Shown here: positions 20,306-38,587 of the stretch, piece by piece
How the letters are laid out: every line of letters starts with the position of its first letter
Position numbering within the stretch: the stretch's first letter is position 1
NCBI GenBank assembly: GCA_023150875.1
Contig: JAKLKC010000008.1
Span: 62,001 to 126,000, forward strand
From: Myxococcota bacterium
GTDB taxonomy: Bacteria; Myxococcota_A; UBA796; UBA9615; JAKLKC01
DNA length: 64,000 bases
Direction: 5' to 3'
Position numbers and translations under genes: made by a program
The notes under the pieces: model-generated
Database searches by the model: none
What the model saw: the letters and a program-made list of their open reading frames with translations, nothing else
Told to the model about the DNA's origin: nothing

Positions 20306-21504
20306 GGGGCGGCCTCCAGGAGGGTGACGGCGATCTCCCCGGTGTCCGAGGCCGCCGCCACCAGGGCGCGGCGGTGGCGACCCTCCGCCAGGACCGGGAG
20401 GGCCAGGGCCAGGGCGAAGGCTCCCCCGGCGGCGCCGCCGTCCCCCAGCACCCCCGCGGGGGCGAGGAGGTCCACCCCGGGGTGCAGCAGCTCGGGCAGG
20501 ACGCCGAAGACCGCGGCCTCGGCGGGATCCCCGGACGCGGAGACCAGCGCGACGCCCACGTCGTCCCCCCGCAGGCCCGCCTCGTCCAGGGCCCGGCCCA
20601 CCGCCCGGGCCAGGGCCTCCCGCCCCAGGTCGACGGGCAGGGGCTCCCCCAGGCCGGCGGGGGCGCAGGCGTCGGCACAGGCGAGCACCCTGGCCCTCAC
20701 CCTCGCCCCCCTCCCCCGGGCTCGCTCCTCGGGCTCCACCACTACGAAGGCCGCCCCCTCGCCGGGCACGATCCCGAGGGCGCCGGGCCCGAGGGGGCCA
20801 CACTCCCCCCACGGGGGCTCGGCGGCGGGGTGGAGGCGCCCCAGCAGGTGCAGGCCGACGAGCTTCTCCATGTAGAGCTGGGTGTCGTGGCCCCCGGCCA
20901 GGAGGGCGTCGGCGCCGCCGTCCCGCAGCGCCCACTGGGCCTCGGCGAGGGCCTGGATCCCCCCCGCCCTGCCGTTGCCGATGTTGTCGTTGGGGCCCCG
21001 CAGGCCGTAGCCCTGGGCCACCAGCGCCAGCACGTTGTTGGTCAGCCCCTTCACCAGCCACAGGGGGTTGATGGTGGGGACCCCCTCGCGGCCGAAGCGG
21101 ACCAGGTCCAGCCTCCCGTCGGCCTCGGCGTCCCGCAGCGCGGGAAGGAACTCGTTGTCCTCGTCCACCGTCAGGGCGGCGCCGGTGAACATGCCCCGGC
21201 GCAGGTCGGGCAGATCCCCCCAGACCGCCTGCTCGCCGCCGGCGTCCGCCACGGCGAGGCGTGCCGCGCCGACCCCGAAGCGCACGGGCCAGCTCATCAC
21301 CTTCAGCATCTTGCGGTGAAAGGCGTGGTCGCCGGGCTTGAACCCGGCCGCCACCTCGCCGCCGTAGGCGATGGGGGTCCACGGCTCGCGGGTGCGCTCC
21401 AGGGGGCGGATCCCCGTCTCGCCCCGGCGCCACCGCCCCCACACCTCCTCGGGGGAGAGGCCCAGGGCGGAGACCATCCCGGCTCCCGTGAGCACCGCCC
21501 TCAT
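20302..21504 (-). CDS. Beta-ketoacyl-synthase homologue lacking catalytic residues (KS1, CLF-like)
   Basis: A 400-residue thiolase-fold protein with KS landmarks (LTGAGMVSALG at the start, LLAGGHDTQ, PGEGAAFVVVE), but the active site is gone. By alignment to KS2 the nucleophile Cys is replaced by Arg179 (GNGRAGGIQAL), and both catalytic His motifs and the conserved Lys are missing. It cannot condense on its own. It resembles a chain-length-factor-type partner that would dimerise with an active KS (inference). ATGA overlap with KS2 upstream and TTGA overlap with the reductase downstream imply tight stoichiometry. Confidence 0.85.
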   Translation of the reverse strand: MRAVLTGAGMVSALGLSPEEVWGRWRRGETGIRPLERTREPWTPIAYGGEVAAGFKPGDHAFHRKMLKVMSWPVRFGVGAARLAVADAGGEQAVWGDLPDLRRGMFTGAALTVDEDNEFLPALRDAEADGRLDLVRFGREGVPTINPLWLVKGLTNNVLALVAQGYGLRGPNDNIGNGRAGGIQALAEAQWALRDGGADALLAGGHDTQLYMEKLVGLHLLGRLHPAAEPPWGECGPLGPGALGIVPGEGAAFVVVEPEERARGRGARVRARVLACADACAPAGLGEPLPVDLGREALARAVGRALDEAGLRGDDVGVALVSASGDPAEAAVFGVLPELLHPGVDLLAPAGVLGDGGAAGGAFALALALPVLAEGRHRRALVAAASDTGEIAVTLLEAAP

Positions 21505-22811
21505 GCCGGGCCCTCCCAGCGGCGGAACACCAGGGAGGCGTTCTGGCCGCCGAAGCCGAAGGAGTTGCTGACGGCGTACTCGAAGGACGCCGGCCGCCCC
21601 ACGAGGGGCACGTAGTCCAGGTCGCACTCGGGATCGGGATCGCGCAGGTTCAGGGTGGGGGGCAGCACCTGGTGGCGCAGGGCCTGGACCACCGCCACCC
21701 CCTCCACGGCCCCGGCGGCGGCGACGGCGTGGCCGATCATCGACTTGGTGCTGCTCACCGGCGGGGCCCTGCCGGGGCCGCCGAACACCGCGCGGATCGC
21801 CTCGGTCTCGTGGGCGTCGTTGAGGGGGGTGGCGGTGCCGTGGGCGTTGATGTAGCCCACCGCCTCGGGGGGGAGGCCCGCGTCCCGCAGCGCCGAGCGC
21901 ATCGCCCGGGCCGCGCCCGCCCCGTGGGGAGCCGGGGCGGTGACCCGGAAGGCGTCCAGGGAGGACCCGTACCCCACGATCTCCGCCAGGGGGCGAGCCC
22001 CCCGGGCGAGGGCCAGGTCCAGGGGCTCCAGCACGAACATCGCCGCCCCTTCGCCGATCACGAAGCCGTCCCGAGTGCGGTCGAAGGGGCGGGACACCGC
22101 CTCGGGGGGGCGATCGGTGGTGGTGGAGAGGGCGCCGAGCAGGGCGAAGGAGAGCACGCCGAACGGGTGGATCATGGACTCGAAGCCGCCGCAGACGGCG
22201 AGGTCGATCTCCCCCTCCCGCAGGTCGTGGAAGGCGTGCCCGATGGCCTGGGCGGCGGCGGCGCAGGCGCCGTGGTTGGTCAGGACCGGCCCCGCGGCCC
22301 CCGCCCTCCGGGCCACCAGGGCGGCGCAGAGATCGGTCATGTGCCGGTAAGCGAAGAGGCCGTCGTTCCGCGCCGCGGCCCTCCCCGCGGACCGGGGATC
22401 GTAGGCCCCCCGGCCGTCCAGGTGGGCCAGGAAGTCCTGCTCCGCCTCGGGGACCTCGGTGGAGGTCAGCCCCGTGGCGAGGTGGACCCCGCGCCGGGCC
22501 GGGGGGACGGACGAGGGAGCGGCGGCCCCGAAGGCGGAGGCGAGGGCGTCCCCGGCGGCGGCGAGCCCGAAGGCGGTCTTGCGGTCCAGCCCCCGCTCCA
22601 GGAAGGCGCCCAGCTCGCCGGGGAGGGCCGCCCCGGGGTCGAAGTCCCGCACCCGGGCGGCCACCTTCACCTCGAAGCCGGTGGTGTCGAAGGCGTCCAG
22701 GGCGCTCACCCCCGAACGGCCGGCGATCATGTCCCGGAACACCGCCTCGGGATCCCGCCCCAGGGGGCAGATCAGGCCCATGCCGGTGACGGCGACGCGG
22801 CGGGGGGTCAC
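21501..22811 (-). CDS. Beta-ketoacyl-ACP synthase, catalytically intact (KS2)
   Basis: A 436-residue FabF-type ketosynthase with a full catalytic set: Cys183 (NHGACAAAAQ), His324 (INAHGTATPLND), Lys356 and His361 (STKSMIGHAVAAAG). The C-terminal SNSFGFGGQNAS loop is canonical. It condenses acyl-ACP with malonyl-ACP. The GTG at 22811 overlaps the KS3 stop (GTGA). Flanked by two inactive homologues, it may form a KS/CLF-like heterodimer with either neighbour. Confidence 0.93.
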   Translation of the reverse strand: MTPRRVAVTGMGLICPLGRDPEAVFRDMIAGRSGVSALDAFDTTGFEVKVAARVRDFDPGAALPGELGAFLERGLDRKTAFGLAAAGDALASAFGAAAPSSVPPARRGVHLATGLTSTEVPEAEQDFLAHLDGRGAYDPRSAGRAAARNDGLFAYRHMTDLCAALVARRAGAAGPVLTNHGACAAAAQAIGHAFHDLREGEIDLAVCGGFESMIHPFGVLSFALLGALSTTTDRPPEAVSRPFDRTRDGFVIGEGAAMFVLEPLDLALARGARPLAEIVGYGSSLDAFRVTAPAPHGAGAARAMRSALRDAGLPPEAVGYINAHGTATPLNDAHETEAIRAVFGGPGRAPPVSSTKSMIGHAVAAAGAVEGVAVVQALRHQVLPPTLNLRDPDPECDLDYVPLVGRPASFEYAVSNSFGFGGQNASLVFRRWEGPA

Positions 22812-24043
22812 GGCGTGGCCTCCAGGCACACCGCCGCGGCGGCCCCCGAGGGATCCCCGGCCCACGCCAGGATCCGCGCCCCGCGGCCGGTGGAGAGGGC
22901 GACGGCCAGGCCCGCGTCCAGGGCCCCGGCGGCGCCGCCGCAGTGGCCGAGGCGGTGCTTCGTGAAGAGGCGTTCGGCCGAGGCCGGGAGTCCCAGGGCG
23001 CGGGCCGCCTCCTCCTCGGCGGCGTCCCCCCGGGGGGTGCCCCAGCCGTCGGCGACCCAGAGGTCCACGTCCCCGGGGTCCCAGCCGGCGCGGTGCAGGG
23101 CCCGTTCCGCGGCTCCGCCGTAGCCCTCGGGCCCCCCCGGAGCGCCGAAGTCCGCCGGTCCGTCTCCGGGGGCGGCGCCGCTCCCCCAGCCGGCGAGGCG
23201 GGCCAGGGCGCGGGCCCCCCGGGCCTCGGCGCGGGCGCGGCCCTCCAGCAGCAGGAAGGCGGCCCCCTCGCCGGGCACGGTGCCGTCCCGGCCCCGGTCG
23301 AAGGGACGGCAGGCGCCGGTGGAGGAGAGCAGGCCCCGGGTCCCCAGGTAGGACACGTCGAAGGGGTTGACCTGGGCGTCGGTGCCCCCGACGAGGGCGG
23401 CCTCGCAGGATCCCCGGAGAAGGGCCTTGGCCCCCTCCCCCACCGCGGCGAGGGCCGAGCCCCCCCACGGCCCCACCGACAGGTTCACCCCCCGGATCCC
23501 GTGGGTGATGGCGACGTGGGCCATCGCCATGTTGGGGAGCACCTTCAGGGCGTCGATGGGGTTCATGCGGTGGCGGCCGGACTCGAAGAGGCGCCGGAGG
23601 GACAGGGGCACCCGGCCCTCCCCCGGGGCGGGGGCGTCTCCCGCGGGGTCCTCGGCCCGGGAGCCGGCCATCATCCCGACGACGTCGTCCATCTCCGGGA
23701 CCTCGTAGCCGCAGGCGGCGAACAGGCCGCAGCCCTCCCCCTCGCCCGCCCCCACCGCGCCGGCCCCGGCCTGGGCGAGGGCGTCCCCGGCGGCGTGGAC
23801 GGCGAGGCGGGCGTTGCGGCTCATCAGCTTGATCGCCTTGCGATCCGCCAGGTGGCGGCGGGGCTCGAAGTCGGCGACCTCGGCGCCGTGGGTCCAGGGG
23901 AAGCCCGAGGCGTCGAAGGCGCGGATGGGGGCCACCGCCGAGCGCCCCTCCCTCCACCCGGCCAGGGTGGCCTCGCGCCCGGTGCCCAGGGGGGTGACGA
24001 GGCCGATCCCCGTCACCACCACGTCCGCCCGGGAGGGCCTCAC
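22808..24043 (-). CDS. Beta-ketoacyl-synthase homologue with altered active site (KS3, CLF-like)
   Basis: A 411-residue KS-fold protein. The nucleophilic Cys position is Gly194 (SVGPWGGSALAAVG), and the first catalytic His is Trp334 (ADGWGTPRGD). Lys362 and His367 of the second motif are kept (FTKHRLGHCGGAAG). PGEGAAFLLLE and VGGTDAQVNPF confirm the family. It cannot form an acyl-Cys intermediate. Like CLF proteins it may shape the chain cavity or decarboxylate malonyl-ACP (inference). GTGA overlaps link it to KS4 and KS2. Confidence 0.85.
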   Translation of the reverse strand: MRPSRADVVVTGIGLVTPLGTGREATLAGWREGRSAVAPIRAFDASGFPWTHGAEVADFEPRRHLADRKAIKLMSRNARLAVHAAGDALAQAGAGAVGAGEGEGCGLFAACGYEVPEMDDVVGMMAGSRAEDPAGDAPAPGEGRVPLSLRRLFESGRHRMNPIDALKVLPNMAMAHVAITHGIRGVNLSVGPWGGSALAAVGEGAKALLRGSCEAALVGGTDAQVNPFDVSYLGTRGLLSSTGACRPFDRGRDGTVPGEGAAFLLLEGRARAEARGARALARLAGWGSGAAPGDGPADFGAPGGPEGYGGAAERALHRAGWDPGDVDLWVADGWGTPRGDAAEEEAARALGLPASAERLFTKHRLGHCGGAAGALDAGLAVALSTGRGARILAWAGDPSGAAAAVCLEATP

Positions 24044-25311
24044 CGGTCCCACCGCGCCAGGGCGACGGTGGCGTTGGAGCCGCCGAAGCCCAGGGAGTTG
24101 CTGAGGGCGTAGCGGACCTCGGCCCGCCTCGCCGCGTGGGGGACGTAGTCGAGGTCGCAGCGGGGATCGGGCTTGTCGAGGTTCGCCGTGGGGGGGAGCA
24201 GGCCGTTCCGCAGGGCCAGGACGGTGAACGCCGCCTCCACCGCCCCCGCGGCGGCGACCAGGTGGCCGATCTGCCCCTTGTTCGAGGACACCGTCACCGC
24301 CCGGGCGTGCTCCCCCAGGGCGCGGTGGATCGCCAGGGTCTCCGACAGGTCGTTCATCACCGTGGAGGTGCCGTGGGCGTTGACGTAGCCCACCTCCGTC
24401 GCCGGGATCCCGGCGTCCTCCACGGCCCCCGCCATGGCCTCGAAGGCGCCGCCGCCGTCGGGGGGGGAGTCGGTGACGCGGTAGGCGTTGTTGGAGCTGC
24501 CGTAGCCCGCCAGCTCCGCCAGCACCCTCGCCCCCCGGGCCCGGGCGTGCTCCAGGCTCTCCACCACCAGGAAGCCCGCGCCCTCCCCCAGCACGAAGCC
24601 GTCCCGGTCGGCGTCGAAGGGGCGGCTGGCCCGCCGGGGATCGTCGTTGCGCTGGCTCAGGGCCCCCAGGAGGCTGAAGCCCATCACCATGAACGCCTCC
24701 ACCAGGGCGTCGCAGCCCCCGGCGATCACCACGTCGGCCTCGCCCCGCCGGACCAGGCGCAGGGCGATCCCCAGGGCCTGGGAGCCGCTGGTGCAGGCGG
24801 TGGAGGAGGTCCGGGAGGGCCCCCGGGCGCCGAACCTCCGGGCGATGGCCTGGGCGGGCACCGCCATCGCCAGGCGGGGGAACTCGTCCCTGCCGATCTC
24901 GGGGATCACCGGCAGCAGCGAGTCGGCGTGGCGGTGGCGGAAGTAGCGGTCGGCGACCTCCTCGAGCTGCTTGCGGGCGGCCTCGGCGCCTACGGAGACG
25001 CCGAGGCGGGAGGGGTCCGCGGGGGGCGAGGCGTCGAGGCCGGCGTCCCGCCACGCGGCGTCGGCGGCCACCAGGGCCATGCGGGTGCGGCGGTCGAAGC
25101 GGGCGAACTCCCCGGGGTCCATCCCCGGGGGGGCCTCCAGGGGGAAGTCCGCCTGGGCGGCGATCCCGGTGGCGAAGCCCGTGGCGTCGAAGCGGGTGAT
25201 GCGCCCCACGGCGATCTCCCCCGCGACCAGCCGGGCCCACGACGAGGCGAGGTCCGGCCCCAGGGGGGTGAAGGCCCCCATGCCGGTGACGACCGCCCGG
25301 GGAGGGGCCAT
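24040..25311 (-). CDS. Beta-ketoacyl-ACP synthase, catalytically intact (KS4)
   Basis: A 423-residue FabF-type enzyme with Cys173 (SSTACTSGSQALG), His313 (VNAHGTSTVMND), Lys345 and His350 (SSNKGQIGHLVAAAG), and a canonical SNSLGFGGSNA C-terminus. It is the first ketosynthase of the operon, right after the FabZ-like dehydratase, whose stop shares one base with its ATG (TGATG). It differs clearly from KS2 in the cap region (residues about 60-150), suggesting a different chain length or substrate. Confidence 0.93.
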   Translation of the reverse strand: MAPPRAVVTGMGAFTPLGPDLASSWARLVAGEIAVGRITRFDATGFATGIAAQADFPLEAPPGMDPGEFARFDRRTRMALVAADAAWRDAGLDASPPADPSRLGVSVGAEAARKQLEEVADRYFRHRHADSLLPVIPEIGRDEFPRLAMAVPAQAIARRFGARGPSRTSSTACTSGSQALGIALRLVRRGEADVVIAGGCDALVEAFMVMGFSLLGALSQRNDDPRRASRPFDADRDGFVLGEGAGFLVVESLEHARARGARVLAELAGYGSSNNAYRVTDSPPDGGGAFEAMAGAVEDAGIPATEVGYVNAHGTSTVMNDLSETLAIHRALGEHARAVTVSSNKGQIGHLVAAAGAVEAAFTVLALRNGLLPPTANLDKPDPRCDLDYVPHAARRAEVRYALSNSLGFGGSNATVALARWDR

Positions 25312-25817
25312 CAGGCGTCCCCGCCGGACGCCAGCCCGCCGTCCGGCATGGGCCAGCCCAGGCGGCGCAACTCCCGGCGCTCGAACTCCTCCAGCGAGAG
25401 GCCCGCCACCACGTCCGGCACCCCCTCGGGGTTGAACACGAAGACCAGGTCCATCTGGGCGCGGCGCTTGCCCCCGACCTCGATCCGCCCCTTCACCAGG
25501 GCGGACTCGGGGCGCAGGGAGTCCAGCTTCGCCACCAGGTCGATCCGCTCGCCGGGGCGGACGAAGGAGCGGAACTTGGTCTCCTTCACCATGGAGAGGA
25601 TCGGGAAGACCCACACCCCCGTCTGGCCGTACTGGGTGACCTCGATCAGCTTGCCGGCGAGCTGGGCGACCATCTCCACCAGCAGCACCCCCGGGACCAC
25701 CGGGAACCCCGGGAAGTGGTCCCCGAACAGGGGCAGGTCGGCGGAGAGCACGGTGTGCCCCCGGGCGGTGTCCCCGGGGAGGATCTCGTCGATGCGGTCC
25801 ACCAGCAGCCAGCGCAT
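25311..25817 (-). CDS. FabZ-like 3-hydroxyacyl-ACP dehydratase
   Basis: A 168-residue hot-dog-fold protein. The catalytic His34 (GDHFPGFPVVPG) and Glu48 (VEMVAQLAG) are spaced 14 residues apart as in FabZ. About 30 extra C-terminal residues follow the fold. It would dehydrate 3-hydroxyacyl-ACP to enoyl-ACP. No ketoreductase gene is present in the operon to supply that substrate, so a housekeeping FabG may serve, or the step is used differently. TGATG overlaps both neighbours. Confidence 0.9.
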   Translation of the reverse strand: MRWLLVDRIDEILPGDTARGHTVLSADLPLFGDHFPGFPVVPGVLLVEMVAQLAGKLIEVTQYGQTGVWVFPILSMVKETKFRSFVRPGERIDLVAKLDSLRPESALVKGRIEVGGKRRAQMDLVFVFNPEGVPDVVAGLSLEEFERRELRRLGWPMPDGGLASGGDA

Positions 25818-27106
25818 CAGGTCCTCGGCTCCTCGGCGGGGACCGCCTCGGGCGCTGAAGGGGTCGGCTCGGCGGGGCGGGGGTCCACCACCGTCGCGCC
25901 CCGAACCACCAGGGGCACCCCCGTGGGCAGGCCCTCGGGGAGCTTGTTGACCCACCCCTCCTCGGCGCCGGTCACGAAGTAGCCGTTGGGCACCTCGCGC
26001 CCCGGCGAGACGAACAGGCGGGTGCCCAGGGTCGCCCCGTGCCCCACCGCCGAGCCCAGGAAGTTCGTGCCGGAGTCCACCAGGCGCCCCTGGTGCCGGA
26101 CCTTCACGTCCCCGAAGAAGTTGATGTCCACGAGGCCGGCGAGGCTGGTGGTGGTCGCCCCCCTCCCGATCACCGAGACCTGGGTGAAGGGCATTCCCAC
26201 GAACGCGCCCGGGTAGACCACCGAGCAGAACACGAAGGCGCCCCGGGTCAGCCACGAGCCCGGCCCCATCACCGACAGGGCGATCTGGGAGTGGGCGGCC
26301 ACGGCGACCCCGTCCCCCAGCACGGCGCCCTGGACCACGGAGTAGGGCCCGATGTGGACCCCGTCGCCGATCCACGACGCCTCCACGATGGCGGTGCGGT
26401 GGATCTTGCACTTCTTCCCGATCCGGGAGAACACGCGGTTCCGGTTGCGGAAGGGGAAGGTGAGCAGGAACCAGAGCCCCCGCAGGACGAGGCTGAGCTT
26501 GCGCTCCTCGAACGCCTCCTGGAAGGTCCCGCCGATGGCGTCGAGGTTCACCCGCAGCAGGTGGATCCAGTGCCGGACGTGCATGGCGCGTCGGGTGGTC
26601 CCGGCGGCGAGGGTGCGGCGGTCCTTGTCGGCCCCGGCGCGGAAGCCCGCGGGGACCGGGACCTCGGTGACCTTCTCGCGGGGGTCCACCAGGCGGACGG
26701 GGAGCTCGCCGCGGCGGGCGAGGTCCGCCGCCGACGCCAGGTGCCACAGCTCGTAGGCCATGCCCTCGGCCTCCCCGTCCCGGGCGGGGACGAGGTCCTG
26801 CAAGGGGTGGGAGTTGGCGAGGTACTGGGAGGCCCGGATCCCCGCCCGCGCCGACGCGCCCGCCGCTGCCTTCAGGAAGTCCCGGAGGAGCTGACGGGTC
26901 ACGTAGAGGTCGTCCGGGAAGGCGAGGCAGGGGAACTGGTCCACGCGATCCCACGAGTCCACGCGCACCGGCTCGAAGCCCACCGCCCGCAGGGCGTCGT
27001 CCTGGTGACCGCACAGGGGGCGGTTGAGGACGAGCACGTCCTGGACGGCATCTCCGAACGGGGAGAGTCGAGATCCGGTGGCGACGATGTAGGCGCGGAG
27101 GGCCAC
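25817..27106 (-). CDS. LbH-domain protein with N-terminal nucleotidyltransferase-like segment, first gene of the operon
   Basis: About 429 residues. The N-terminus (YIVATGSRLSPFGDAVQ, then LVLNRPL) faintly resembles a sugar-nucleotidyltransferase fold without an intact pyrophosphorylase signature. A helical region follows (HWIHLLRVNLDAIGGTFQEA), then from about 230 a left-handed beta-helix of hexapeptides (GDGVHIGPYSVVQGAVLGDG). The GTG at 27106 was chosen for its GGAAG ribosome site 9 bases upstream; longer frames lack one. Together with the LbH protein at the operon's other end it gives the cluster two candidate transferases. Function unknown. Confidence 0.6.
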   Translation of the reverse strand: MALRAYIVATGSRLSPFGDAVQDVLVLNRPLCGHQDDALRAVGFEPVRVDSWDRVDQFPCLAFPDDLYVTRQLLRDFLKAAAGASARAGIRASQYLANSHPLQDLVPARDGEAEGMAYELWHLASAADLARRGELPVRLVDPREKVTEVPVPAGFRAGADKDRRTLAAGTTRRAMHVRHWIHLLRVNLDAIGGTFQEAFEERKLSLVLRGLWFLLTFPFRNRNRVFSRIGKKCKIHRTAIVEASWIGDGVHIGPYSVVQGAVLGDGVAVAAHSQIALSVMGPGSWLTRGAFVFCSVVYPGAFVGMPFTQVSVIGRGATTTSLAGLVDINFFGDVKVRHQGRLVDSGTNFLGSAVGHGATLGTRLFVSPGREVPNGYFVTGAEEGWVNKLPEGLPTGVPLVVRGATVVDPRPAEPTPSAPEAVPAEEPRT

Positions 27107-27206
27107 GGGCAAACGCTTCCGGCACCCCGCCGGCTGGGGGCGGGGCCTCTCCCCCGGTGTAGAAGAGGCCGGAATGGTATCACGCCGCGCCCCGGGACGG
27201 AACGTG

Positions 27207-27222
27207 GATTGACTCGTCAATC
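27207..27222. promoter_or_regulatory. Inverted repeat between the ketosynthase operon and the divergent membrane-protein gene
   Basis: GATTGAC and GTCAATC, perfect 7-bp arms with a 2-base centre, sit about 100 bases from both divergent starts (27106 minus, 27322 plus). The size and position fit a dimeric repressor or activator site. TTGAC within the arms could also be a -35 element on either strand, but no convincing -10 follows at 17 bases. Confidence 0.5.
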
Positions 27223-29739: not shown

Positions 29740-31527
29740 TCAAGGGATGGACCGCGAGAGGCGAAGGCCGAGGGTGTCGCCCCCGCCGGAGGGCTCCCCA
29801 AAGCCCCGATTGGCCACGCGCGTCCCCGCCGGCCCATCGTCCCACGCACCTCCGCGGCCGACGCGGTCGGCGCCGACTCCGGGTCCAGCGGGGTCGGTGA
29901 CGACGCCCGTCGGGTAGGCGCCGTACCGGTCCCAGCACCACTCCCACACGCTGCCCGTCATGTCGTACAGGCCCCAAGGGTTCGGGAGCTTCTGCCGCAC
30001 CGGCGCCAGCCCCAAGGCGCCGCCCCGGCCGGGGAACACCTCCACCGTCACCCAGCCGTTCCTCTCGCACATCTCCGCCGTCGCCACCTGGGCGAACCCG
30101 GTCACTTGTGCCAAATCGTCGGTGCCCGCCCACCGCCACGGCGTGCCCGCCCGCGCCGCGTACTCCCACTCCGCTTCGGTGGGTAGCCGATACCCGTCCC
30201 GCGAGCGGTCCCACGTGACTTCCTCGCCCTCGATCGCGTAGGCCGGCGCCAGCCCGTGCAGCTCCGACAGGCGGTTGGCGAAACGGACGGCGTCCCACCA
30301 GCTCAAGGAGTGGATCGGGAGGTCGTCCCCCACCCCCCAATCCCGGCCTGGATCCCGCTCCTCTCCGCCCAGGATCTCCCGCCGGGTCTCGACGGGGTTC
30401 TCCCCGGTCACCGCCCTCCACAGCCCCTGCGTCACCGGCGCCTCCCCCAGCCAGTACGCCCGGGTCAGGGTGACCCGGTGCTGGTCCTCATCCTCGTCGC
30501 GCCCCGGCTCGGTGGGCGGGGAGCCCATCAGGAATGAGCCCGGCTCGATGCGGACCATCGGGTACGGTGGGTGTCGCGGGCGCGGCCTCCGGGGTTCCCA
30601 CGCCCCCGCCGCCTCGAAGGGCTCCAGCGCGTCGGACAGGGCGCGACAAGAGGGGTAGCGGTCCTCCGGCCGGCGAGCCAGCCCCCGGGCCATCGCCCCC
30701 ACCACATGGGCCGGGGGCACGCGGCCGCCGGCGAGCCGCCCCAGCCCGGGCGCGTCCTCCCGGGTCTTCCTCGTCAGGTAGGCGACGTAGCTCCCGAGGT
30801 CCTGGAAGCCCCCCGGGGGGAGCGGGAACGGGAACCGCCCCGTCAGGAGCATGTGGAGCACCACCGCCGCCCCGTACACGTCGGCACGGGCGTCCAGGGC
30901 ATCGCCGCCGAGCACCTCCGGCGCCATGTACGGCGGGGTGCCGGGGGGAAGGCCCGGGGTCAGGGAGGGATCGTCGAGGACCCGCGAGATCCCGAAGTCC
31001 ACCACCTTCACCTGGTCGGGGGCGCCGCCGTGGTCCCGGGACAGGATGAACACGTTCTCCGGCTTGATGTCCCGGTGGAGGACCTTCTTCCGATGCGCCG
31101 CCTCCAGCCCCTCCAGCACCTGGCGGACGATCCGGACGGCCCGATCCGGGGGGATCGGCCACTCCTCCTGGATCACGCCGGAGAGGGGCGCGCCGTCCAG
31201 GAACTCCATCACCATGAAGGGGCCGTAGCCTCGGCTCTCCCCCACGTCGGTCACCTGGACGACCCGAGCGTGATGGATGAGGGCCGCCGCCCGGGCCTCG
31301 GTGAGGAACCTCCTCACGTTGTCGGGCCTGCCCAGCACGTGGGGCAGCAACAGCTTCAGCGCCATCCGCCGGCCCCCCAGCCGGGAGTCCTTCACCTCCC
31401 CGACCCAGCCGAAACCACCCTGCCCGAGCCCGCGGACCACCTCGTAGCGATCCCCCACCCTCGTCCCGGCGGGAGGCGGGAACGGCGCGGGGTCCACGGT
31501 ACCCGGGGGCACGAGGGTGTCGTTCAT
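29740..31527 (-). CDS. Ser/Thr protein kinase fused to a formylglycine-generating-enzyme-like domain
   Basis: About 595 residues. The N-terminal Hanks kinase (residues about 28-300) is intact: glycine loop GLGQGGFGWV, Lys58, HRDIKPENV with Asp153, DFG with Asp177, and PPYMAPEV. The C-terminal domain (about 322-595) belongs to the FGE-sulfatase/SUMF1 fold: MVRIEPGSFLMGSP, GYRLPTEAEWEYAARAG, NPWGLYDMTGSVWEWCWD and GRGGAWDDG. The usual paired cysteines of true FGE are not obvious, so the domain may be a ligand or protein-binding module. No transmembrane helix is seen, so it is probably cytoplasmic. The start is uncertain between ATG 31527 and TTG 31557; neither has an ideal ribosome site. It lies upstream of the TA and RiPP-like loci. 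Confidence 0.88.
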   Translation of the reverse strand: MNDTLVPPGTVDPAPFPPPAGTRVGDRYEVVRGLGQGGFGWVGEVKDSRLGGRRMALKLLLPHVLGRPDNVRRFLTEARAAALIHHARVVQVTDVGESRGYGPFMVMEFLDGAPLSGVIQEEWPIPPDRAVRIVRQVLEGLEAAHRKKVLHRDIKPENVFILSRDHGGAPDQVKVVDFGISRVLDDPSLTPGLPPGTPPYMAPEVLGGDALDARADVYGAAVVLHMLLTGRFPFPLPPGGFQDLGSYVAYLTRKTREDAPGLGRLAGGRVPPAHVVGAMARGLARRPEDRYPSCRALSDALEPFEAAGAWEPRRPRPRHPPYPMVRIEPGSFLMGSPPTEPGRDEDEDQHRVTLTRAYWLGEAPVTQGLWRAVTGENPVETRREILGGEERDPGRDWGVGDDLPIHSLSWWDAVRFANRLSELHGLAPAYAIEGEEVTWDRSRDGYRLPTEAEWEYAARAGTPWRWAGTDDLAQVTGFAQVATAEMCERNGWVTVEVFPGRGGALGLAPVRQKLPNPWGLYDMTGSVWEWCWDRYGAYPTGVVTDPAGPGVGADRVGRGGAWDDGPAGTRVANRGFGEPSGGGDTLGLRLSRSIP

Positions 31528-31697
31528 CGGGGGCGACGGACTCCTGGGCGCGGTCAACCTGCCGCGGCCAGTCTACCCCGAGGCCAGGATCCGGGGGAGA
31601 AACCCGGGCCGGATCCGGGTGGTGGAGGTCGGCCCACCGGCGGCTGGCCCCTTCCTCAAGGTGCCGCCCTCCGCCGACACTCGCTGAGAGCCCCGGT

Positions 31698-31726: not shown

Positions 31727-31732
31727 ATGGTC

Positions 31733-31993
31733 ATGAAAACCGTCGGTATCGCGGAACTCAAGGCCCATCTCAGCGAACACCTCCAGGCCGTCCGGCGGGG
31801 CGAGACCCTCACCGTGCTCGACCGGCGGGAGCCCATAGCCCGCATCGTGCCCCTCCACGAGACGGCCGGTGGCCTCGTGGTCCGGCCCCCTCGGGGTGCG
31901 CTCCACGACATCCCCCTCCCGGGGCCGACGCGGAGCGGCCGGGACGCGGACGTGGTGGACGACCTGATGGCGGAGCGGCGGGAGCGGCTTTGA
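31733..31993 (+). CDS. Phd/YefM-type antitoxin
   Basis: An 86-residue antitoxin. The N-terminus (MKTVGIAELKAHLSEHLQAV) is the classic Phd/YefM DNA-binding segment, followed by GETLTVLDRREPIARIVPL. The C-terminus is charged and probably binds the toxin. It precedes a PIN-domain toxin with a TTGA overlap. Such antitoxins usually repress their own promoter. ATG 31727 (two residues longer) is an alternative start. Confidence 0.9.
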   Translation: MKTVGIAELKAHLSEHLQAVRRGETLTVLDRREPIARIVPLHETAGGLVVRPPRGALHDIPLPGPTRSGRDADVVDDLMAERRERL

Positions 31994-32403
31994 TCGCCTA
32001 CGTCGACTCGTCGGTCCTGCTGCGGGTGGTCCTGGGGCAACCGGACCGACTCCCCTCCTGGGGCGAGATCGAGTTGGCGGTGACGAGCGGCGTCACCGAA
32101 GTGGAGTGCCTACGAACCCTGGATCGGCGCTGCCGCCAGGGCCTCCTGGCGGAGGAGGAGGTCCCGGAGCGGCGGGGGCTGGTGATCCGTCTGCTCGAGA
32201 GGATGGAACGGGTCGAAGTCGCGCCCGCCATCCTCCGGCGTGCCGCCGACCCGTTCCCCGTGGCGCTCGGCACGCTGGACGCCATCCACCTGGCGACCGC
32301 GTCCCTGTGGGGGACCGCCCGAGGCGAGATGCCGGTCATGGCGACCCACGACGTCCAGCTCGCGGCGGCCGCCCGATCCCTCGGGATCGTCACTGTCGGC
32401 TGA
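31990..32403 (+). CDS. PIN-domain toxin (VapC-like)
   Basis: A 137-residue PIN ribonuclease-type toxin. Acidic active-site residues are visible: Asp of YVDSSVLL, Glu of TEVECLR, Asp of TLDAIHLATA and Asp of ATHDVQL. The TTG start overlaps the antitoxin stop. Such toxins cut RNA and are neutralised by the antitoxin. It converges with the CCG-type LanC gene. Confidence 0.9.
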   Translation: MIAYVDSSVLLRVVLGQPDRLPSWGEIELAVTSGVTEVECLRTLDRRCRQGLLAEEEVPERRGLVIRLLERMERVEVAPAILRRAADPFPVALGTLDAIHLATASLWGTARGEMPVMATHDVQLAAAARSLGIVTVG

Positions 32404-32494: not shown

Positions 32495-33685
32495 TCAGGC
32501 CGGGAAGGGGTCGAGCCGAAACAAGGGTGCCCAGGAGCCGGGCAACCCCAAGAACTCGCTCACGGCGAGAGCCAGACCGGGGAACCCGCGCTGGAGGGTG
32601 CTGGGGAGGGCCAGGCCCTCGTCGTTCCGGGGCAGCCACTCGGGGAGGTCGCCTGCGGCGTGGTGCAACGCCGCCCGGGCCGCCCCGCGAAGCGTCGCGT
32701 CCCCCGTGAGCTGCCATAGGCGTCCGTACATCAACGCCCGTCCCGCGGATCCACAGCAGAGCGTGGGATCGGCGGCAGCCGCGGCCGGAAGTTCGGTCCC
32801 TCTTGCCGCCGCACGGCACGCCACACGCCGGGCCAGGTCCAGGAGGGCGACGTCCCCGAGGGCCACCGCCGCCTGTGCCAGCCCCCACGCCACCCCAGGC
32901 CCCCCGTGGCACCAGCCCGAGAAGGGGGCCGCCTCCAGGCGTCCGTCGGGGGCCACGCTCGCCGGGATCCCGTCGCCCGTCTCGCCTTTCAGGGGAGAGG
33001 CGGCCTGGGCCACGACCCCGGCGACCCAGCCCGCGGCCTCCTCGATCGCCTCCCCACCCCCCAGGCCCGCGTGCCGCGCCCGCGCCAGCAGGCTCAGTGA
33101 GGCCGCGGCGCCCCGGGCGTGGCCGAGGTATGCCCGGCCGTCGGGGCCGACCCACCTCGGAGGCACGGCGGCCCCCGACGCCCGGGCGGCGCAGATCCGG
33201 ACGGCGCGCGTCGCCAACGCGGCGGGCCCAGGGGACGAGGGACTCTCCTCGTGCCGGTGGATTGCGTAGAGCGCCCTCCCGATCCAGTCCGGCACGGTGC
33301 CCGGCCGTGCCTCCTCGCTCGCGAGGTCCTCGGCCAGGCAGCCATCGGCGACGGCCGCGAGGTCCATGCCTACCCCGCCGGGCGCGATACCGCGGGCGAT
33401 CCAGCTCACACCAAAGATGCCGCCGAGCCACGTCCTGCGCAGCGGGTTCCCCGCGGTCAGGGCACGGCACCCGATCTCCAGCAGACGGTGAGCCCGGTCG
33501 GACGCCCACCGCCCACCGAGGGCGCCCAGGCGAGACGCCAGGAGCGCCGCCTCGAACGCCACGTGGGACGCTGGAGATCCCCCCTCGATCCCGTCCAGGT
33601 ACCCTGTGGCCAGCCCCTCGATCTGGCTCAGTAGGGCACGGCGCTCGCGAGGGCGGAGAAGGTCGGTCAACGAGTTGTCGGTCAT
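32495..33685 (-). CDS. Stand-alone LanC-like cyclase with a CCG (three-Cys) zinc site
   Basis: A 396-residue alpha/alpha-barrel protein of the lanthionine synthetase C family. The motifs appear in order: YLGHARGAA with His189 (equivalent of AHGxxG), FSGWCHGGPG with Cys259, TLCCGSAGRA with Cys310-Cys311, and LQRGFPGLALAV near the end. In ordinary LanC the third motif is CHG; here His is replaced by Cys, giving the CCG pattern known from ProcM-type cyclases with a three-thiolate zinc. It would add Cys thiols to dehydroamino acids, or perform another thiol-ene addition. It is divergent from the precursor-peptide gene, with about 200 bases between the starts. No fused dehydratase or kinase domain is present. 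Confidence 0.85.
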   Translation of the reverse strand: MTDNSLTDLLRPRERRALLSQIEGLATGYLDGIEGGSPASHVAFEAALLASRLGALGGRWASDRAHRLLEIGCRALTAGNPLRRTWLGGIFGVSWIARGIAPGGVGMDLAAVADGCLAEDLASEEARPGTVPDWIGRALYAIHRHEESPSSPGPAALATRAVRICAARASGAAVPPRWVGPDGRAYLGHARGAAASLSLLARARHAGLGGGEAIEEAAGWVAGVVAQAASPLKGETGDGIPASVAPDGRLEAAPFSGWCHGGPGVAWGLAQAAVALGDVALLDLARRVACRAAARGTELPAAAAADPTLCCGSAGRALMYGRLWQLTGDATLRGAARAALHHAAGDLPEWLPRNDEGLALPSTLQRGFPGLALAVSEFLGLPGSWAPLFRLDPFPA

Positions 33686-33886
33686 CAGGCGGCTCCGGTT
33701 TCCCTTCGCGGCGCCCCCAGCGGCCCCGGGGAGAGGATGCCCCACGGGGCGCAGGGCAAGCCGGGTCCCGGGCCCGGATCGATATCGGCACGAAATCTCG
33801 AGGGGACGGTGGAACGGCGTATGGATGGATCGGCTCGATGGAACGGATCCCCCGGTCCATGCGACAGCCGGCAAAGGGAGACTGCG

Positions 33887-34075
33887 ATGAAGAAGGTCAC
33901 CAGCGAGCGGAACGAGGTCGCCACCCAGACCACGCCGAGGATGCCTCGGATCCAGCGGGAGTCGATCCGCGTGCTGACCGAGGAGAGGCTCGCCGACGCC
34001 AAGGGTGGGGCGTTCATCAACGTGCAGGGCGGCTGCTGCGGGAGCGCCTACATCAGCTCCGGCAGCAGGTTCTGA
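33887..34075 (+). CDS. Candidate RiPP precursor peptide with GG leader and CysCys core
   Basis: A 62-residue peptide. The charged leader (residues 1-41) ends in VLTEERLADAKGG, a double-glycine-type processing site as in many lanthipeptide and Bacteroidetes-type leaders. The 21-residue core starts AFINVQGG and contains Cys50-Cys51, then Ser53, Ser57, Ser58 and Ser60, with no Thr. ATG 33887 has GGGAG 6 bases upstream; an in-frame upstream ATG at 33737 lacks one and adds an Arg/Gly-rich tail. A LanC-like gene lies on either side. It is the presumed substrate of both cyclases; no homology search was possible. Confidence 0.75.
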   Translation: MKKVTSERNEVATQTTPRMPRIQRESIRVLTEERLADAKGGAFINVQGGCCGSAYISSGSRF

Positions 34076-34166
34076 CGCCGGGTCGACCGCCCGCCACCCC
34101 ACCAGGAGCCGCGTCGGGGTGGCGGGCTCCCGGGTGGCGGATGCGTTGGAGAGGGACCTCGATGTG

Positions 34167-35279
34167 ATGTGGTCGCGGGTCTCGGCGAAGGCGTGGCCCC
34201 CCCCTGAGGCGGCGGAACAGGCGGCCTACGCGGCGGGAGATCACGCCCTTGCCGCCGTGGTGGATTGGTCCGCCGCGGAGCGGCATCCCCACGTCCGGGG
34301 CCGCCTCGAGGAGGCGACCGCCGCCCTCGGGGAAGAGCCGGCGGACTTGTCCATGGCCCCGGGCGGGCTGCTGCGCTACGGCTGGGCGACCGCCTACCTG
34401 GCGCGCCGGGGAGTCGTCCCCGCGGCGCCGCTCCTGGACGAGATCGACGAAGCAGTCCTGGATGTCGCGACCCGATACGGAGCGTCCCTCGGCTCCGATG
34501 ACCTCGTGGACATGGGGACGTACCTGAGGGAACGCCTCCCCGCACCCACTGCCGCCCGCGCCCTCGACGTGGTGCTAGAGGGGATCGAGCGCGCGGCGAT
34601 CCCCCTGGGGAGGGGCCTCGGGTGGCCGTCCCTGCGGAACCCCCTCGCCGACGAGGCGGGCGCCGATCCGGGCGCGACGGTCCTCGATGCGGGCCTCGCC
34701 CACGGGTTTCCTCGGGTGACGGCGCTGCTGGTCGGACTGTGCGACGAGGGGATCCCGGTAGACGCCCTCCTCCACTCATCGACTACCGGCATGTCGGACC
34801 TCGCCGCCACCGGTGCGCCCGCTCCCTTCTACCAGGACCGGGGGCGGGGGCCGGAGCCGATTCGCCCCGCCCGCATCGCCGACGGGTGGTGCCACGGCGC
34901 GCTGGGCTTCGGACTCACCCTCTTGAGGGGATCTCGAGCCCTGGGGCGGGAGGACGACGCGGAGCGGGCGATCGAGCTGCTCCGCGGTTGGGTTTCGGCG
35001 GCTCGCGAGCCGGAAGACGATCCATTCGCCTCGATCGGCCTTTGCCATGGGGCCGCGGGGCGCGCCCAGATCCTGGCACGGGTGGCGGCCCTATGCGACG
35101 ACCGCTGCTTCGCGTCGGAGGCCCAACGCTGGAGGAGAGTGCTCGCCGACAGGCTCGCAGCGGGCCGCAGGGATCGCGACGGGGGTTCCTTCTATCAGGG
35201 CATCCCGGGCGCGGCCCTGGCGCTCGCGACGGCGGCGGGTGCGGACCCGTCCTGGGACCGGCTGCTCCTGCTCTCTTGA
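34167..35279 (+). CDS. Stand-alone LanC-like cyclase with canonical zinc site
   Basis: A 370-residue LanC-family protein with a complete motif set: GLAHGFPRV with His179, DGWCHGALG with Cys242, IGLCHGAAG with Cys293-His294, and the C-terminal FYQGIPGAALALA. This is the Cys/Cys-His zinc site of NisC-type cyclases. It lies 91 bases after the precursor gene on the same strand, so it is probably co-transcribed. ATG 34167 is chosen; GTG 34164 and GTG 34134 are alternatives, and a GGAGAGG ribosome site sits 8-11 bases upstream. It is only distantly similar to the CCG-type protein, with different motif spacing. No LanB-type dehydratase is adjacent. Confidence 0.85.
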   Translation: MWSRVSAKAWPPPEAAEQAAYAAGDHALAAVVDWSAAERHPHVRGRLEEATAALGEEPADLSMAPGGLLRYGWATAYLARRGVVPAAPLLDEIDEAVLDVATRYGASLGSDDLVDMGTYLRERLPAPTAARALDVVLEGIERAAIPLGRGLGWPSLRNPLADEAGADPGATVLDAGLAHGFPRVTALLVGLCDEGIPVDALLHSSTTGMSDLAATGAPAPFYQDRGRGPEPIRPARIADGWCHGALGFGLTLLRGSRALGREDDAERAIELLRGWVSAAREPEDDPFASIGLCHGAAGRAQILARVAALCDDRCFASEAQRWRRVLADRLAAGRRDRDGGSFYQGIPGAALALATAAGADPSWDRLLLLS

Positions 35280-36545: not shown

Positions 36546-37048
36546 TCGCCCCGTCGGGAACCCGTCACCGAGCCCGAGACACCCGGGAGATCTCCTTCTC
36601 GACCTTTCGGTCCGCGCCCTTGGGCGTCCACGGCGGCCCGATCCGTGCCTGCTCGGTTGCCGCCTACAGCTCCGGGCCTCCCCTCATCCTCCCTCCGCGT
36701 TCTCCGCCGGCCCTGGACGGGCCACCCTGCGCCTCTGCGGGCGAGCCAAGGACGGCGAGCCGATCACGACCATCGCCCGCCGTCACGAACCGTCTTTCAT
36801 GCCCGACGGGACGGTTCTCGAGCTGGATCCGAACCGCCGGAATCGAAGACCGGGGGGTGGCGCTCCTGGCACCTGGTACTTCCACCCCCGAGGTTGGGGA
36901 GCGCGGCAGGGGGACTTCCCGTTCCTCGACGGGGCGGCGCGGAGGTACCCAGCTCCCGGTTCCGGTACGACTTGCAAACTCCGCCGGGCCTGCACATGCT
37001 CAATAGCACATAGTCCACATATACCGCCCCACGGCGAAGAGGTTGCCC
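36546..37048. other. 503-base gene-free stretch before the first VapBC pair
   Basis: Contains the first copy of the 63-bp direct repeat (36809-36871). Before the antitoxin gene is a more AT-rich stretch (36970-37025) with a TTGCAA hexamer at 36972 but no good -10 at 17 bases. No believable gene is present. Confidence 0.7.
36809..36871. repeat. 63-bp direct repeat, copy 1
   Basis: Matches 37793-37855 (offset 984 bases) with about three mismatches. The shared block runs from GGACG to CTCCTGGCA and includes GCCGGAATCGAAGACCGG. It ends 177 bases before the VapB-like start. Confidence 0.9.
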
Positions 37049-37273
37049 GTGCCTCAGCTCCACCTCTACGTTCCGGACGACGTCGCCGCCGCGGTGCGCC
37101 AGCGGGCCGACGCGCTGGGAGTGAGCGTCTCGAAGTACCTCGCGAGCCTGGTCGAGCGGGAACTGGGGCCTGGCTGGCCGTCCACTTTCTTCGATGACGT
37201 GGTCGGCCGATGGCAGGGACCGCCCCTCGAGCGGCCTCCCCAGCTCCCCCTCGAAGACCGGGAAGCCCTGTAG
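37049..37273 (+). CDS. RHH-type antitoxin of VapBC pair A
   Basis: A 74-residue ribbon-helix-helix-like protein: beta-strand PQLHLYVPDDVA, then AVRQRADALGVSVSKYLASLVE, with an acidic, Pro-rich toxin-binding tail. GTG 37049 has AAGAGG 6 bases upstream and is preferred over TTG 37043. The toxin gene begins on the base after its stop codon. Confidence 0.85.
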   Translation: MPQLHLYVPDDVAAAVRQRADALGVSVSKYLASLVERELGPGWPSTFFDDVVGRWQGPPLERPPQLPLEDREAL

Positions 37274-37681
37274 GTGTTCCTGCTCGACACCAACGCCTGC
37301 ATCCGGGTACTTAACGGATCGTCTCCCATCCTCGTCGACCAGCTCCGCGGGCGAGAGCCGCGGGGCGTCCGGCTGTGCTCCGTCGTCAAGGCCGAGCTGT
37401 ACTACGGGGCCCGCCGGAGCCAGCGCGTCTCGGAGAACCTCGTCCTCCTCGGCCGCTTCTTCACGCCGTTCCTGTGCCTTCCGTTCGACGACGCCTGTGC
37501 AGAGCACTACGGGCTCCTCCGTGCCGAGCTCGCTGATCGCGGATCTCCCATCGGCCCGAACGACCTGATGATCGCCGCCACCGCCCTGGCCCACGACCTC
37601 ACCCTCGTCACCCACGACGTGCGCGAGTTCTCCCGCGTCCCCGGCCTCCGCTTGGTGGACTGGGAGGTGGAGCCGGCGTAG
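37274..37681 (+). CDS. VapC-type PIN toxin, pair A
   Basis: A 135-residue PIN-domain ribonuclease toxin: MFLLDTNACI with the first Asp, SVVKAELYYGA with Glu, GPNDLMIAA with Asp, and LVTHDVREF with the last Asp. This is the classic VapC layout. It starts at GTG immediately after the antitoxin stop. Confidence 0.95.
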   Translation: MFLLDTNACIRVLNGSSPILVDQLRGREPRGVRLCSVVKAELYYGARRSQRVSENLVLLGRFFTPFLCLPFDDACAEHYGLLRAELADRGSPIGPNDLMIAATALAHDLTLVTHDVREFSRVPGLRLVDWEVEPA

Positions 37682-37859: not shown

Positions 37860-37888
37860 TTGCGGCGGGCGGGCGACGCAACTAGAAT
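37860..37888 (+). promoter_or_regulatory. Candidate promoter of VapBC pair B
   Basis: TTGCGG (37860-37865), a 17-base spacer and TAGAAT (37883-37888): the best sigma-70-like match seen in the window. Transcription would start near 37895, downstream of an in-frame ATG at 37887, which supports the GTG start at 37917. Confidence 0.6.
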
Positions 37889-37916
37889 GGAACCGTATTG
37901 CAACCCGGAGCATGAC

Positions 37917-38198
37917 GTGGCGTCTCTCACCCTCAAGGACCTCCCGGATGACCTCCTGGAGCGACTGCGGCGGGCGGCTCGGCGGGACCGTCGAAGCCTG
38001 GCCCAGCAGGTGCTCTACCTGATCGAGGGGGGTCTGGCCGCGGGCGAGCGTTCGGAGGGCACCGCCTCGAGCGAGGCCGAGGAGCAGGTCGCCCGGTGGC
38101 GCGAACTCGCCGGGCGCTGGACCTCCGATCAGTCGTTCGATGATGAGGTCGACCGCATCCGGGCCGCGCGGACCGAGGGCCGGTCCGTCACCCTATGA
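37917..38198 (+). CDS. RHH-type antitoxin of VapBC pair B
   Basis: A 93-residue protein. The ribbon-helix-helix segment is VASLTLKDLPDDLLERLRRA, then RRDRRSLAQQVLYLIEGG, followed by an acidic linker and a toxin-binding tail. GTG 37917 has CGGAG 6 bases upstream. The stop overlaps the toxin ATG by four bases. Confidence 0.9.
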   Translation: MASLTLKDLPDDLLERLRRAARRDRRSLAQQVLYLIEGGLAAGERSEGTASSEAEEQVARWRELAGRWTSDQSFDDEVDRIRAARTEGRSVTL

Positions 38199-38587
38199 AG
38201 ATCCTGGACACCGACACCTGTGTCGCCATCCTGCGCGGGCGCGGCCACGTGATCGACCGGCGGGCGATGGAGCCGGGCACGGTGGCAACGACTTGGATGA
38301 CTGCGGCGGAGCTGTACTTCGGAGCGGCGAAGTCTGCCGCGCCCGAGCACAATCGCCTCCTGGTCGATGCGTTCCTCGCGACCCTCCCCGTGCTGGAGCC
38401 CGACCCGACCGCCGCGAGGTTGTTCGGCGAAGCCAAGGCATTCCTGCAACGGCGAGGGACTCCCCTCGCCGACGCCGACCTCATCATCGCCGCGATCGCC
38501 GTGGCACGCGGGGCGGCGGTGGTCACGGGGAACCACCGACACCTTGCCCGGGTTCCCGGCGTGGTCGTGGAGGACTGGCTCCGATAG
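38195..38587 (+). CDS. VapC-type PIN toxin, pair B
   Basis: A 130-residue PIN-domain toxin: MKILDTDTCVAIL, TAAELYFGA, LADADLIIAAIA and VVTGNHRHLARVPG. The first three acidic positions are present; the fourth is replaced within GNHRH, as in many FitB/VapC relatives. It is coupled to its antitoxin by ATGA. Confidence 0.93.
   Translation: MKILDTDTCVAILRGRGHVIDRRAMEPGTVATTWMTAAELYFGAAKSAAPEHNRLLVDAFLATLPVLEPDPTAARLFGEAKAFLQRRGTPLADADLIIAAIAVARGAAVVTGNHRHLARVPGVVVEDWLR

What the first reader, a model, noticed from the sequence alone, without database searches (positions are those of the whole stretch)
32495..35279. Compact RiPP-like locus: one GG-leader precursor between two divergent stand-alone LanC-like cyclases
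A 62-residue peptide ending in a GG-leader and a CysCys core sits between two LanC-family genes, one on each strand. LanC-type enzymes install lanthionine thioethers, and a precursor with two dissimilar cyclases implies either two ring types or a division of labour. The flanking genes are unrelated. No lanthipeptide class known to me has this minimal layout (LanC-precursor-LanC, no dehydratase beside it).
Basis: partly seen in the sequence, partly recalled or inferred. Interest (0 to 1): 0.9.

Follow-up and report, generated by a model that had tools for sequence, protein, structure and literature searches.

The report
LanC pair flanking peptide, no dehydratase
A small peptide gene with a lanthipeptide-type leader sits between two ring-forming-enzyme (LanC) genes in a myxobacterial-phylum genome, but one of the two enzymes has lost its catalytic residues, the partner enzyme that normally prepares the peptide is missing from the whole assembly, and the peptide cannot form an ordinary ring, so this is either a stripped-down remnant of a known pathway or a variant working by steps not yet known.

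Summary
LanC1 (32495-33685, -), a 62-aa peptide (33887-34075, +) and LanC2 (about 34167-35279, +) are real; they are the only LanC genes in the 6.9-Mb, 98%-complete genome. The peptide has a class I lanthipeptide-type leader: best of 381 window ORFs, 1 of 20,000 shuffles as good. No LanB, LanM or HopA1 dehydratase was detected anywhere in the assembly; positive controls rang for LanB and HopA1. The interpretation needs correcting. LanC2 keeps the catalytic and zinc residues. LanC1 has lost Asp141, His212 and Arg280 (nisin-cyclase numbering) and has a Cys-Cys-Cys zinc triad, so it is probably not a second ordinary cyclase. Neither core Cys has an upstream Ser/Thr (32/32 comparison precursors do), so only reversed thioether rings are possible. 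The layout is not unprecedented: Paraliomyxa miuraensis has a divergent LanC pair around a class I-type precursor, with the same competent/degenerate split, but with LanB three genes away. LanB and LanC genes are also unlinked in other Myxococcota. Best reading: a reduced class I lanthipeptide-type locus, one competent LanC plus a LanC-derived partner, whose dehydratase is lost, unassembled or unrecognised. New variant of a known kind; moderate interest.

The parts
32495..33685 (-). LanC1, 396 aa: LanC-fold protein with a CCC zinc triad (C259, C310, C311); the column of the catalytic His is Arg191; Asp141 and Arg280 equivalents are Gly and Phe
   Evidence: PF05147; AF2/Foldseek match to MadC and NisC; alignment of 92 LanC rows
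33686..33886 (.). 201-bp divergent intergenic region between LanC1 and the precursor; presumably holds both promoters (no sigma-70 consensus found)
   Evidence: sequence; consensus scan negative
33875..33881 (+). Shine-Dalgarno-like AGGGAGA, 5 nt before the precursor ATG
   Evidence: sequence
33887..34075 (+). Precursor peptide gene, 62 aa
33887..34009 (+). Leader part (residues 1-41), class I lanthipeptide type, ends ...IRVLTEERLADAKGG
   Evidence: leader HMM built from relatives without the own genome, E 0.0036, best of 381 window ORFs; 1/20,000 shuffles
34010..34072 (+). Core AFINVQGGCCGSAYISSGSRF: two adjacent Cys (34034-34039), four Ser all downstream of them, no Thr
   Evidence: sequence; comparison with 32 other cores
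34148..34156 (+). GGAGAGGGA, likely ribosome site of LanC2
   Evidence: sequence
34167..35279 (+). LanC2, about 370 aa from ATG 34167 (GTG 34164 or GTG 34119 also possible): LanC with zinc triad C258/C309/H310 and catalytic His195 (numbering from GTG 34119)
   Evidence: PF05147; NisC match E 7.5e-7; AF2/Foldseek; active-site alignment

Best explanation
A reduced, divergent class I lanthipeptide-type RiPP locus. The precursor is co-directional with LanC2, a zinc-dependent LanC that should be able to bind the leader and activate a Cys thiolate. LanC1 is a LanC paralogue that has lost the proton-donating His and the Asp and Arg around it; it most likely works as a non-cyclising partner (leader binding or complex scaffold) or as a thiolate-binding CCC protein. 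Shown here: gene layout, folds, residue losses, leader type, and no detectable LanB/LanM/HopA1 in the assembly. Inferred: that LanC1 and LanC2 act together on this peptide; that Ser dehydration, if it happens, comes from an enzyme that was lost, lies in an assembly gap or is of a type not recognised; that any thioether must be a reversed ring (Cys attacking a downstream dehydroalanine); that the unlinked C39-peptidase exporter of the genome could remove the leader at Gly-Gly.
For: Only two LanC genes in the genome, both here. LanC fold for both. Class I-type leader. Closest sequence relatives are class I LanCs whose genomes carry LanB: G201, G300, G262, G130. Paraliomyxa miuraensis (L116) has the same plan, [degenerate LanC] <- -> [precursor]-[competent LanC], with LanB nearby. 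One degenerate LanC beside a competent one also occurs in L070, L082 and L108. LanB and LanC are encoded apart in two other Myxococcota, G379 and G384, so LanB need not be adjacent. The His lost in LanC1 is the active-site acid of LanC enzymes (PMC9934072). CCC triads with LanB are known but rare, 'B-CCC, 2' (PMC11251773). The genome has one unlinked C39 peptidase.
Against: No dehydratase detected in an assembly that is 98% complete. Neither core Cys has an upstream Ser/Thr, unlike all 32 comparison precursors. The leader is below the NCBIfam cut-off. No second copy of the trio was found, so the association of the three genes rests on one genome. LanC2 also lacks about 4 residues of a conserved helix segment (DLVD----MGTYL). 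The alignment places the LanC1 residues by sequence, not by an experimental structure.
Confidence: 0.5

Rival explanations
1. Ordinary class I lanthipeptide system with its LanB elsewhere in the chromosome, missing only because the assembly (180 contigs) has gaps.
For: LanB is unlinked to the LanCs in G379 and G384; 9 of 11 relatives whose genomes were searched (LanC present; in nine of them no LanB next to that LanC) have a LanB somewhere in the genome.
Against: No match over cut-off in a 97.99%-complete assembly, while the same search rang strongly in four relatives; the core has no Ser/Thr before its Cys; LanC1 lacks catalytic residues.
Confidence: 0.2
2. Decaying remnant: a class I cluster that lost LanB and exporter; both LanCs and the peptide are relics without a product.
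For: LanC1 has the second-longest branch in the LanC tree and lost D/H/R; no LanB, exporter or protease beside it; the locus lies among VapBC-type pairs, and the LanCs have GC3 of 0.86-0.87 against 0.92-0.98 for four other genes of the window.
Against: All three frames are intact; both zinc triads, the leader and coding-type codon-position GC profiles are kept; no LanB fragment in the 64-kb window.
Confidence: 0.18
3. A dehydratase-free use of LanC chemistry: the pair binds the Cys-Cys core and adds its thiols to an outside electrophile, or handles a metal or disulfide peptide, without lanthionine.
For: No known dehydratase detected; CysCys core without upstream Ser/Thr; two thiolate/zinc sites, one of them CCC.
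Against: No direct evidence; the leader is class I lanthipeptide type and the LanC relatives are class I enzymes.
Confidence: 0.08
4. The small ORF is not a precursor and lies between two LanC-like genes by chance.
For: Curated leader model below its cut-off; no conserved copy found elsewhere.
Against: 1 in 20,000 shuffles reaches its leader score, best of 381 window ORFs; SD site; GC3 0.95 with GC1/GC2 of 0.51/0.54.
Confidence: 0.04

Closest known systems
Paraliomyxa miuraensis SMH-27-4 LanC pair locus (NZ_JAOVZF010000151.1, L116)
   Same: Divergent LanC pair around a class I-type precursor (61 aa); precursor co-directional with the competent LanC (EHRCYCH), the other LanC degenerate (GDGCSCH)
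   Different: A full LanB lies three genes downstream of the degenerate LanC, with cupin/JmjC-like, arginase-like and radical-SAM-like genes (judged by eye); the competent and degenerate LanCs are not clear one-to-one orthologues of ours
Class I lanthipeptides (LanB + LanC; nisin, pinensin)
   Same: LanC fold, zinc triad and catalytic His of LanC2; class I-type leader
   Different: No LanB detected in the assembly; two LanCs, one degenerate; no normal-direction ring possible
LanB/LanC-unlinked Myxococcota (MGR_bin64 = G379; Myxococcales PRO3 = G384)
   Same: Divergent LanC pair (MGR_bin64) or single LanC without an adjacent LanB
   Different: A LanB exists on another contig, in G379 with precursors next to it; both LanCs of the MGR_bin64 pair are canonical
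LanC genes without a recognised dehydratase nearby (1392 'unclassified' in Walker et al. 2020, PMC7268733)
   Same: LanC gene(s) without LanB/LanM/kinase in the neighbourhood
   Different: That survey looked only seven genes either side; here the whole assembly was searched and a leader peptide found
Stand-alone LanC-like proteins of Bacteroidales (PMC10352776)
   Same: LanC without LanB in the genome
   Different: Those examined there lack the zinc motif and are probably not lanthionine cyclases; both proteins here keep a zinc triad

Membership tests
LanC / LANC_like (PF05147) | Profile match over the curated cut-off and LanC toroid fold | tested here: met
   38.2 and 46.1 bits against 23.2; Foldseek best hit MadC for both
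LanC / LANC_like (PF05147) | Zinc triad Cys-Cys-His (or Cys-Cys-Cys) | tested here: met
   LanC2 CCH; LanC1 CCC
Catalytic lanthionine cyclase | Active-site acid His (NisC His212) in LanC2 | tested here: met
   GLAHG motif aligned
Catalytic lanthionine cyclase | Active-site acid His (NisC His212) in LanC1 | tested here: not met
   Arg in that column (LGHARG); His in 89 of 92 rows
Class I lanthipeptide gene cluster | LanB dehydratase (PF04738, PF14028) | tested here: not met
   no match over cut-off in the genome; PF04738 positive in G262, G300, G130, G201; the PF14028 genome search had no positive control
Class I lanthipeptide gene cluster | Class I-type leader peptide | tested here: inconclusive
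   NCBIfam 12.2 bits, cut-off 22; own profile E 0.0036
Class I lanthipeptide gene cluster | Core with Ser/Thr upstream of Cys for normal-direction rings | tested here: not met
   0 of 2 Cys; 32 of 32 comparison precursors have at least one
Class I lanthipeptide gene cluster | Lanthionine in the product | not testable with these tools
   needs mass spectrometry
Class II lanthipeptide (LanM) | DUF4135 dehydratase (PF13575) | tested here: not met
   no match in the genome
Class III/IV lanthipeptide (LanKC/LanL) | LanC domain fused to kinase and lyase | tested here: not met
   both LanCs of the genome are stand-alone
Class V lanthipeptide | HopA1-like protein (PF17914) | tested here: not met
   none in the genome; control G354 positive

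The most novel reading that the evidence does not exclude
A minimal two-LanC system that modifies a CysCys peptide without any known dehydratase: a competent CCH LanC and a catalytically altered CCC LanC cooperate, either with an unrecognised dehydratase to make reversed thioether rings or by adding the Cys thiols to another electrophile.
Probability: 0.15. Interest if true: 0.8.

Novelty: new variant of a known kind. Interest (0 to 1): 0.48.

Why it matters
LanC genes without a recognised dehydratase nearby are common in surveys, but it is seldom known whether they do anything. Here the whole assembly was searched, a leader peptide was found, and a recurring pattern appeared: in five LanC pairs from different phyla (this one, Paraliomyxa, a Krumholzibacteriota MAG and two Bacteroidota) one LanC is competent and the other has lost catalytic or zinc residues. 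If LanC pseudo-enzymes have a job (leader binding, ring-direction control), this is a small system in which to test it; if dehydration is really absent, LanC chemistry is broader than lanthionine formation.

Tried and rejected
1) A close orthologue of LanC2 in 84,980 species genomes: none. 2) Orthologues in the order (7 genomes), class (71) and phylum (379): LanC is rare (29 of 379) and no second trio was found. 3) LanB remnants in the window by tblastn and a 29-sequence profile: none; the only good hits were the LanC half of a LanC-LanB fusion (L084) matching our LanCs. 4) Further precursor copies in the genome: only weak hits (E 0.19 or worse), the two best lying in frames with stops or of non-coding make-up. 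5) The weak LanB-N hit on C158 (13 bits) rejected: under cut-off, and weak hits of this kind rang even in E. coli. 6) Kinase-FGE protein (29740-31557) as dehydratase: a Hanks-type kinase with an FGE domain, no lyase; not supported. 7) RNA elements, sigma-70 promoters, terminators and an intercistronic hairpin: nothing above chance. 8) PHROG and PADLOC relatives of both LanCs and plasmid relatives of LanC1: none. 9) I first read the two LanCs of L070 as complementary halves; the full alignment showed one intact and one zinc-less. 10) My first leader profile included the own locus and was redone without it.

Full report
Observation. The finding's coordinates are right. LanC1 lies at 32495-33685 (-), a 62-residue peptide at 33887-34075 (+), LanC2 ends at 35279 (+). 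Both proteins pass the Pfam LANC_like cut-off, and their AlphaFold models match the class I cyclases MadC and NisC and eukaryotic LanCLs in the PDB. LanC2 more likely starts at ATG 34167 behind GGAGAGGGA than at GTG 34119. The genome (6.92 Mb, 180 contigs, 98% complete) has no other LanC. It belongs to the phylum of G300, whose 83,814-bp contig has the same length and LanC position as record JAGPCO010000014.1, a Kofleriaceae MAG; so the phylum is Myxococcota (inferred).

Is the peptide real? It has a Shine-Dalgarno-like site and a coding-type GC profile by codon position, 0.51/0.54/0.95. The curated leader model lant_leader_L1a matches only under its cut-off. A leader profile was therefore built by iteration from four seed leaders and the small ORFs of loci around relatives' LanC genes, own genome left out. 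It puts this peptide first among 381 window ORFs (11.9 bits, E 0.0036; the next has 1.4 bits), and only 1 of 20,000 shuffles scores as high. I take it as a genuine class I-type leader.

Dehydratases. No match over cut-off for LanB-N, LanB-C, LanM DUF4135 or HopA1 was found in the genome. The LanB-N search gave strong hits in the genomes of the nearest LanC relatives and HopA1 in G354; the LanB-C and DUF4135 searches had no positive control over the cut-off. No LanB fragment lies in the window. Genomic separation of LanB and LanC is not rare in this phylum: of 11 further genomes searched, nearly all chosen because a LanC lacked a LanB beside it, 9 have a LanB somewhere, and in G379 and G384 no LanC lies within the fetched stretch around the LanB, which in G379 has two precursors with it. 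So the missing LanB is notable but could be an assembly gap.

The two LanCs. In an alignment of 92 LanC sequences (column counts), the usual residues at NisC positions 141, 212, 280, 284, 285, 330, 331 are D H R C Y C H. LanC2 has D H R C H C H; His at 285 is seen in eight of the 92 rows, ours included, and in eukaryotic LanCLs (PMC9934072). LanC1 has G R F C H C C. The His, proposed acid of the reaction (PMC9934072), is kept in 89 of 92 rows; the exceptions are LanC1, an orphan Bacillota LanC (L068) and one Paraliomyxa LanC. LanC1 also has a Cys-Cys-Cys triad, a type recorded as rare with LanB (PMC11251773). LanC1 has the second-longest end branch in the tree.

Relatives with LanC pairs. Among 79 fetched loci, 10 carry two LanCs. 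In four of them one member is degenerate: L070 and L082 (zinc ligands lost), L108 (Cys284 to Val), L116 (Asp and His lost). The loci were selected by a LanC motif, so one member per locus is canonical at that motif by selection; the frequency is not an estimate. L116, Paraliomyxa miuraensis, is the best parallel: a precursor directly upstream of its competent LanC, the degenerate LanC divergent on the other side, and a LanB three genes on. Our locus is that arrangement without the LanB.

Core. After Lys-Gly-Gly the core is AFINVQGGCCGSAYISSGSRF. All four Ser follow both Cys. In all 32 comparison precursors at least one Cys has an upstream Ser/Thr. A normal-direction lanthionine is therefore impossible; only a reversed ring (known in cinnamycin-type peptides, from memory; C*[ST] motifs are called occasional in PMC11251773) or other chemistry remains. 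A second GG stands directly before CysCys.

Surroundings. VapBC-type pairs flank the locus at 31727-32403, 37043-37681 and 37860-38587. The LanC genes have GC3 of 0.86-0.87, near the VapBC genes (0.84-0.90) and below four other genes of the window (0.92-0.98), as in a recent arrival or relaxed genes. No exporter or protease was seen beside it; the genome has one unlinked C39 peptidase.

Verdict. Real, unusual, and best filed as working like a reduced class I lanthipeptide locus, without claiming membership: LanB and normal-direction core geometry were tested and not met.

Noticed in passing
L034 and L035 (G354:C43, G354:C41): Loci with a LanC plus a HopA1-like protein and an APH-type kinase in Myxococcota, class V-like enzymes with a LanC as third partner; L034 also has a GG-leader peptide with CSC core and an HlyD exporter gene downstream.
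   Followed up: partly
L070:6053-8436, L082:3614-4786 and 9290-10501: Bacteroidota class I clusters with two LanCs, one lacking zinc ligands; L082 also has three near-identical small precursors in a row.
   Followed up: partly
L068:2896-4155: Orphan LanC in a Bacillota MAG with the same Asp-to-Gly, His-to-Arg and Tyr-to-His changes as LanC1 (its highest-identity relative, 28-30%), between unrelated genes and with no LanB or leader peptide beside it.
   Followed up: partly
L074:8972-9193 and L075:3492-3671: Precursors next to LanC/LanB in Geodermatophilaceae with a clear class I leader but Asp/Lys- or His/Asp/Arg-rich cores with a single Cys near the end.
   Followed up: no
L084:9722-14344: LanC and LanB fused in one reading frame in a Phycisphaerales MAG.
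   Followed up: no
L116:7500-18714: Paraliomyxa LanC-pair cluster with a cupin/JmjC-like, an arginase-like and a B12-radical-SAM-like gene (by eye, not profile-searched) around LanB.
   Followed up: no
window 31727-32403, 37043-37681, 37860-38587: Three VapBC-type toxin-antitoxin pairs within 7 kb around the LanC locus.
   Followed up: partly
window 20302-27220: Two ketoacyl synthases and hexapeptide-repeat proteins, possibly a small fatty-acid or polyene-type cluster.
   Followed up: no
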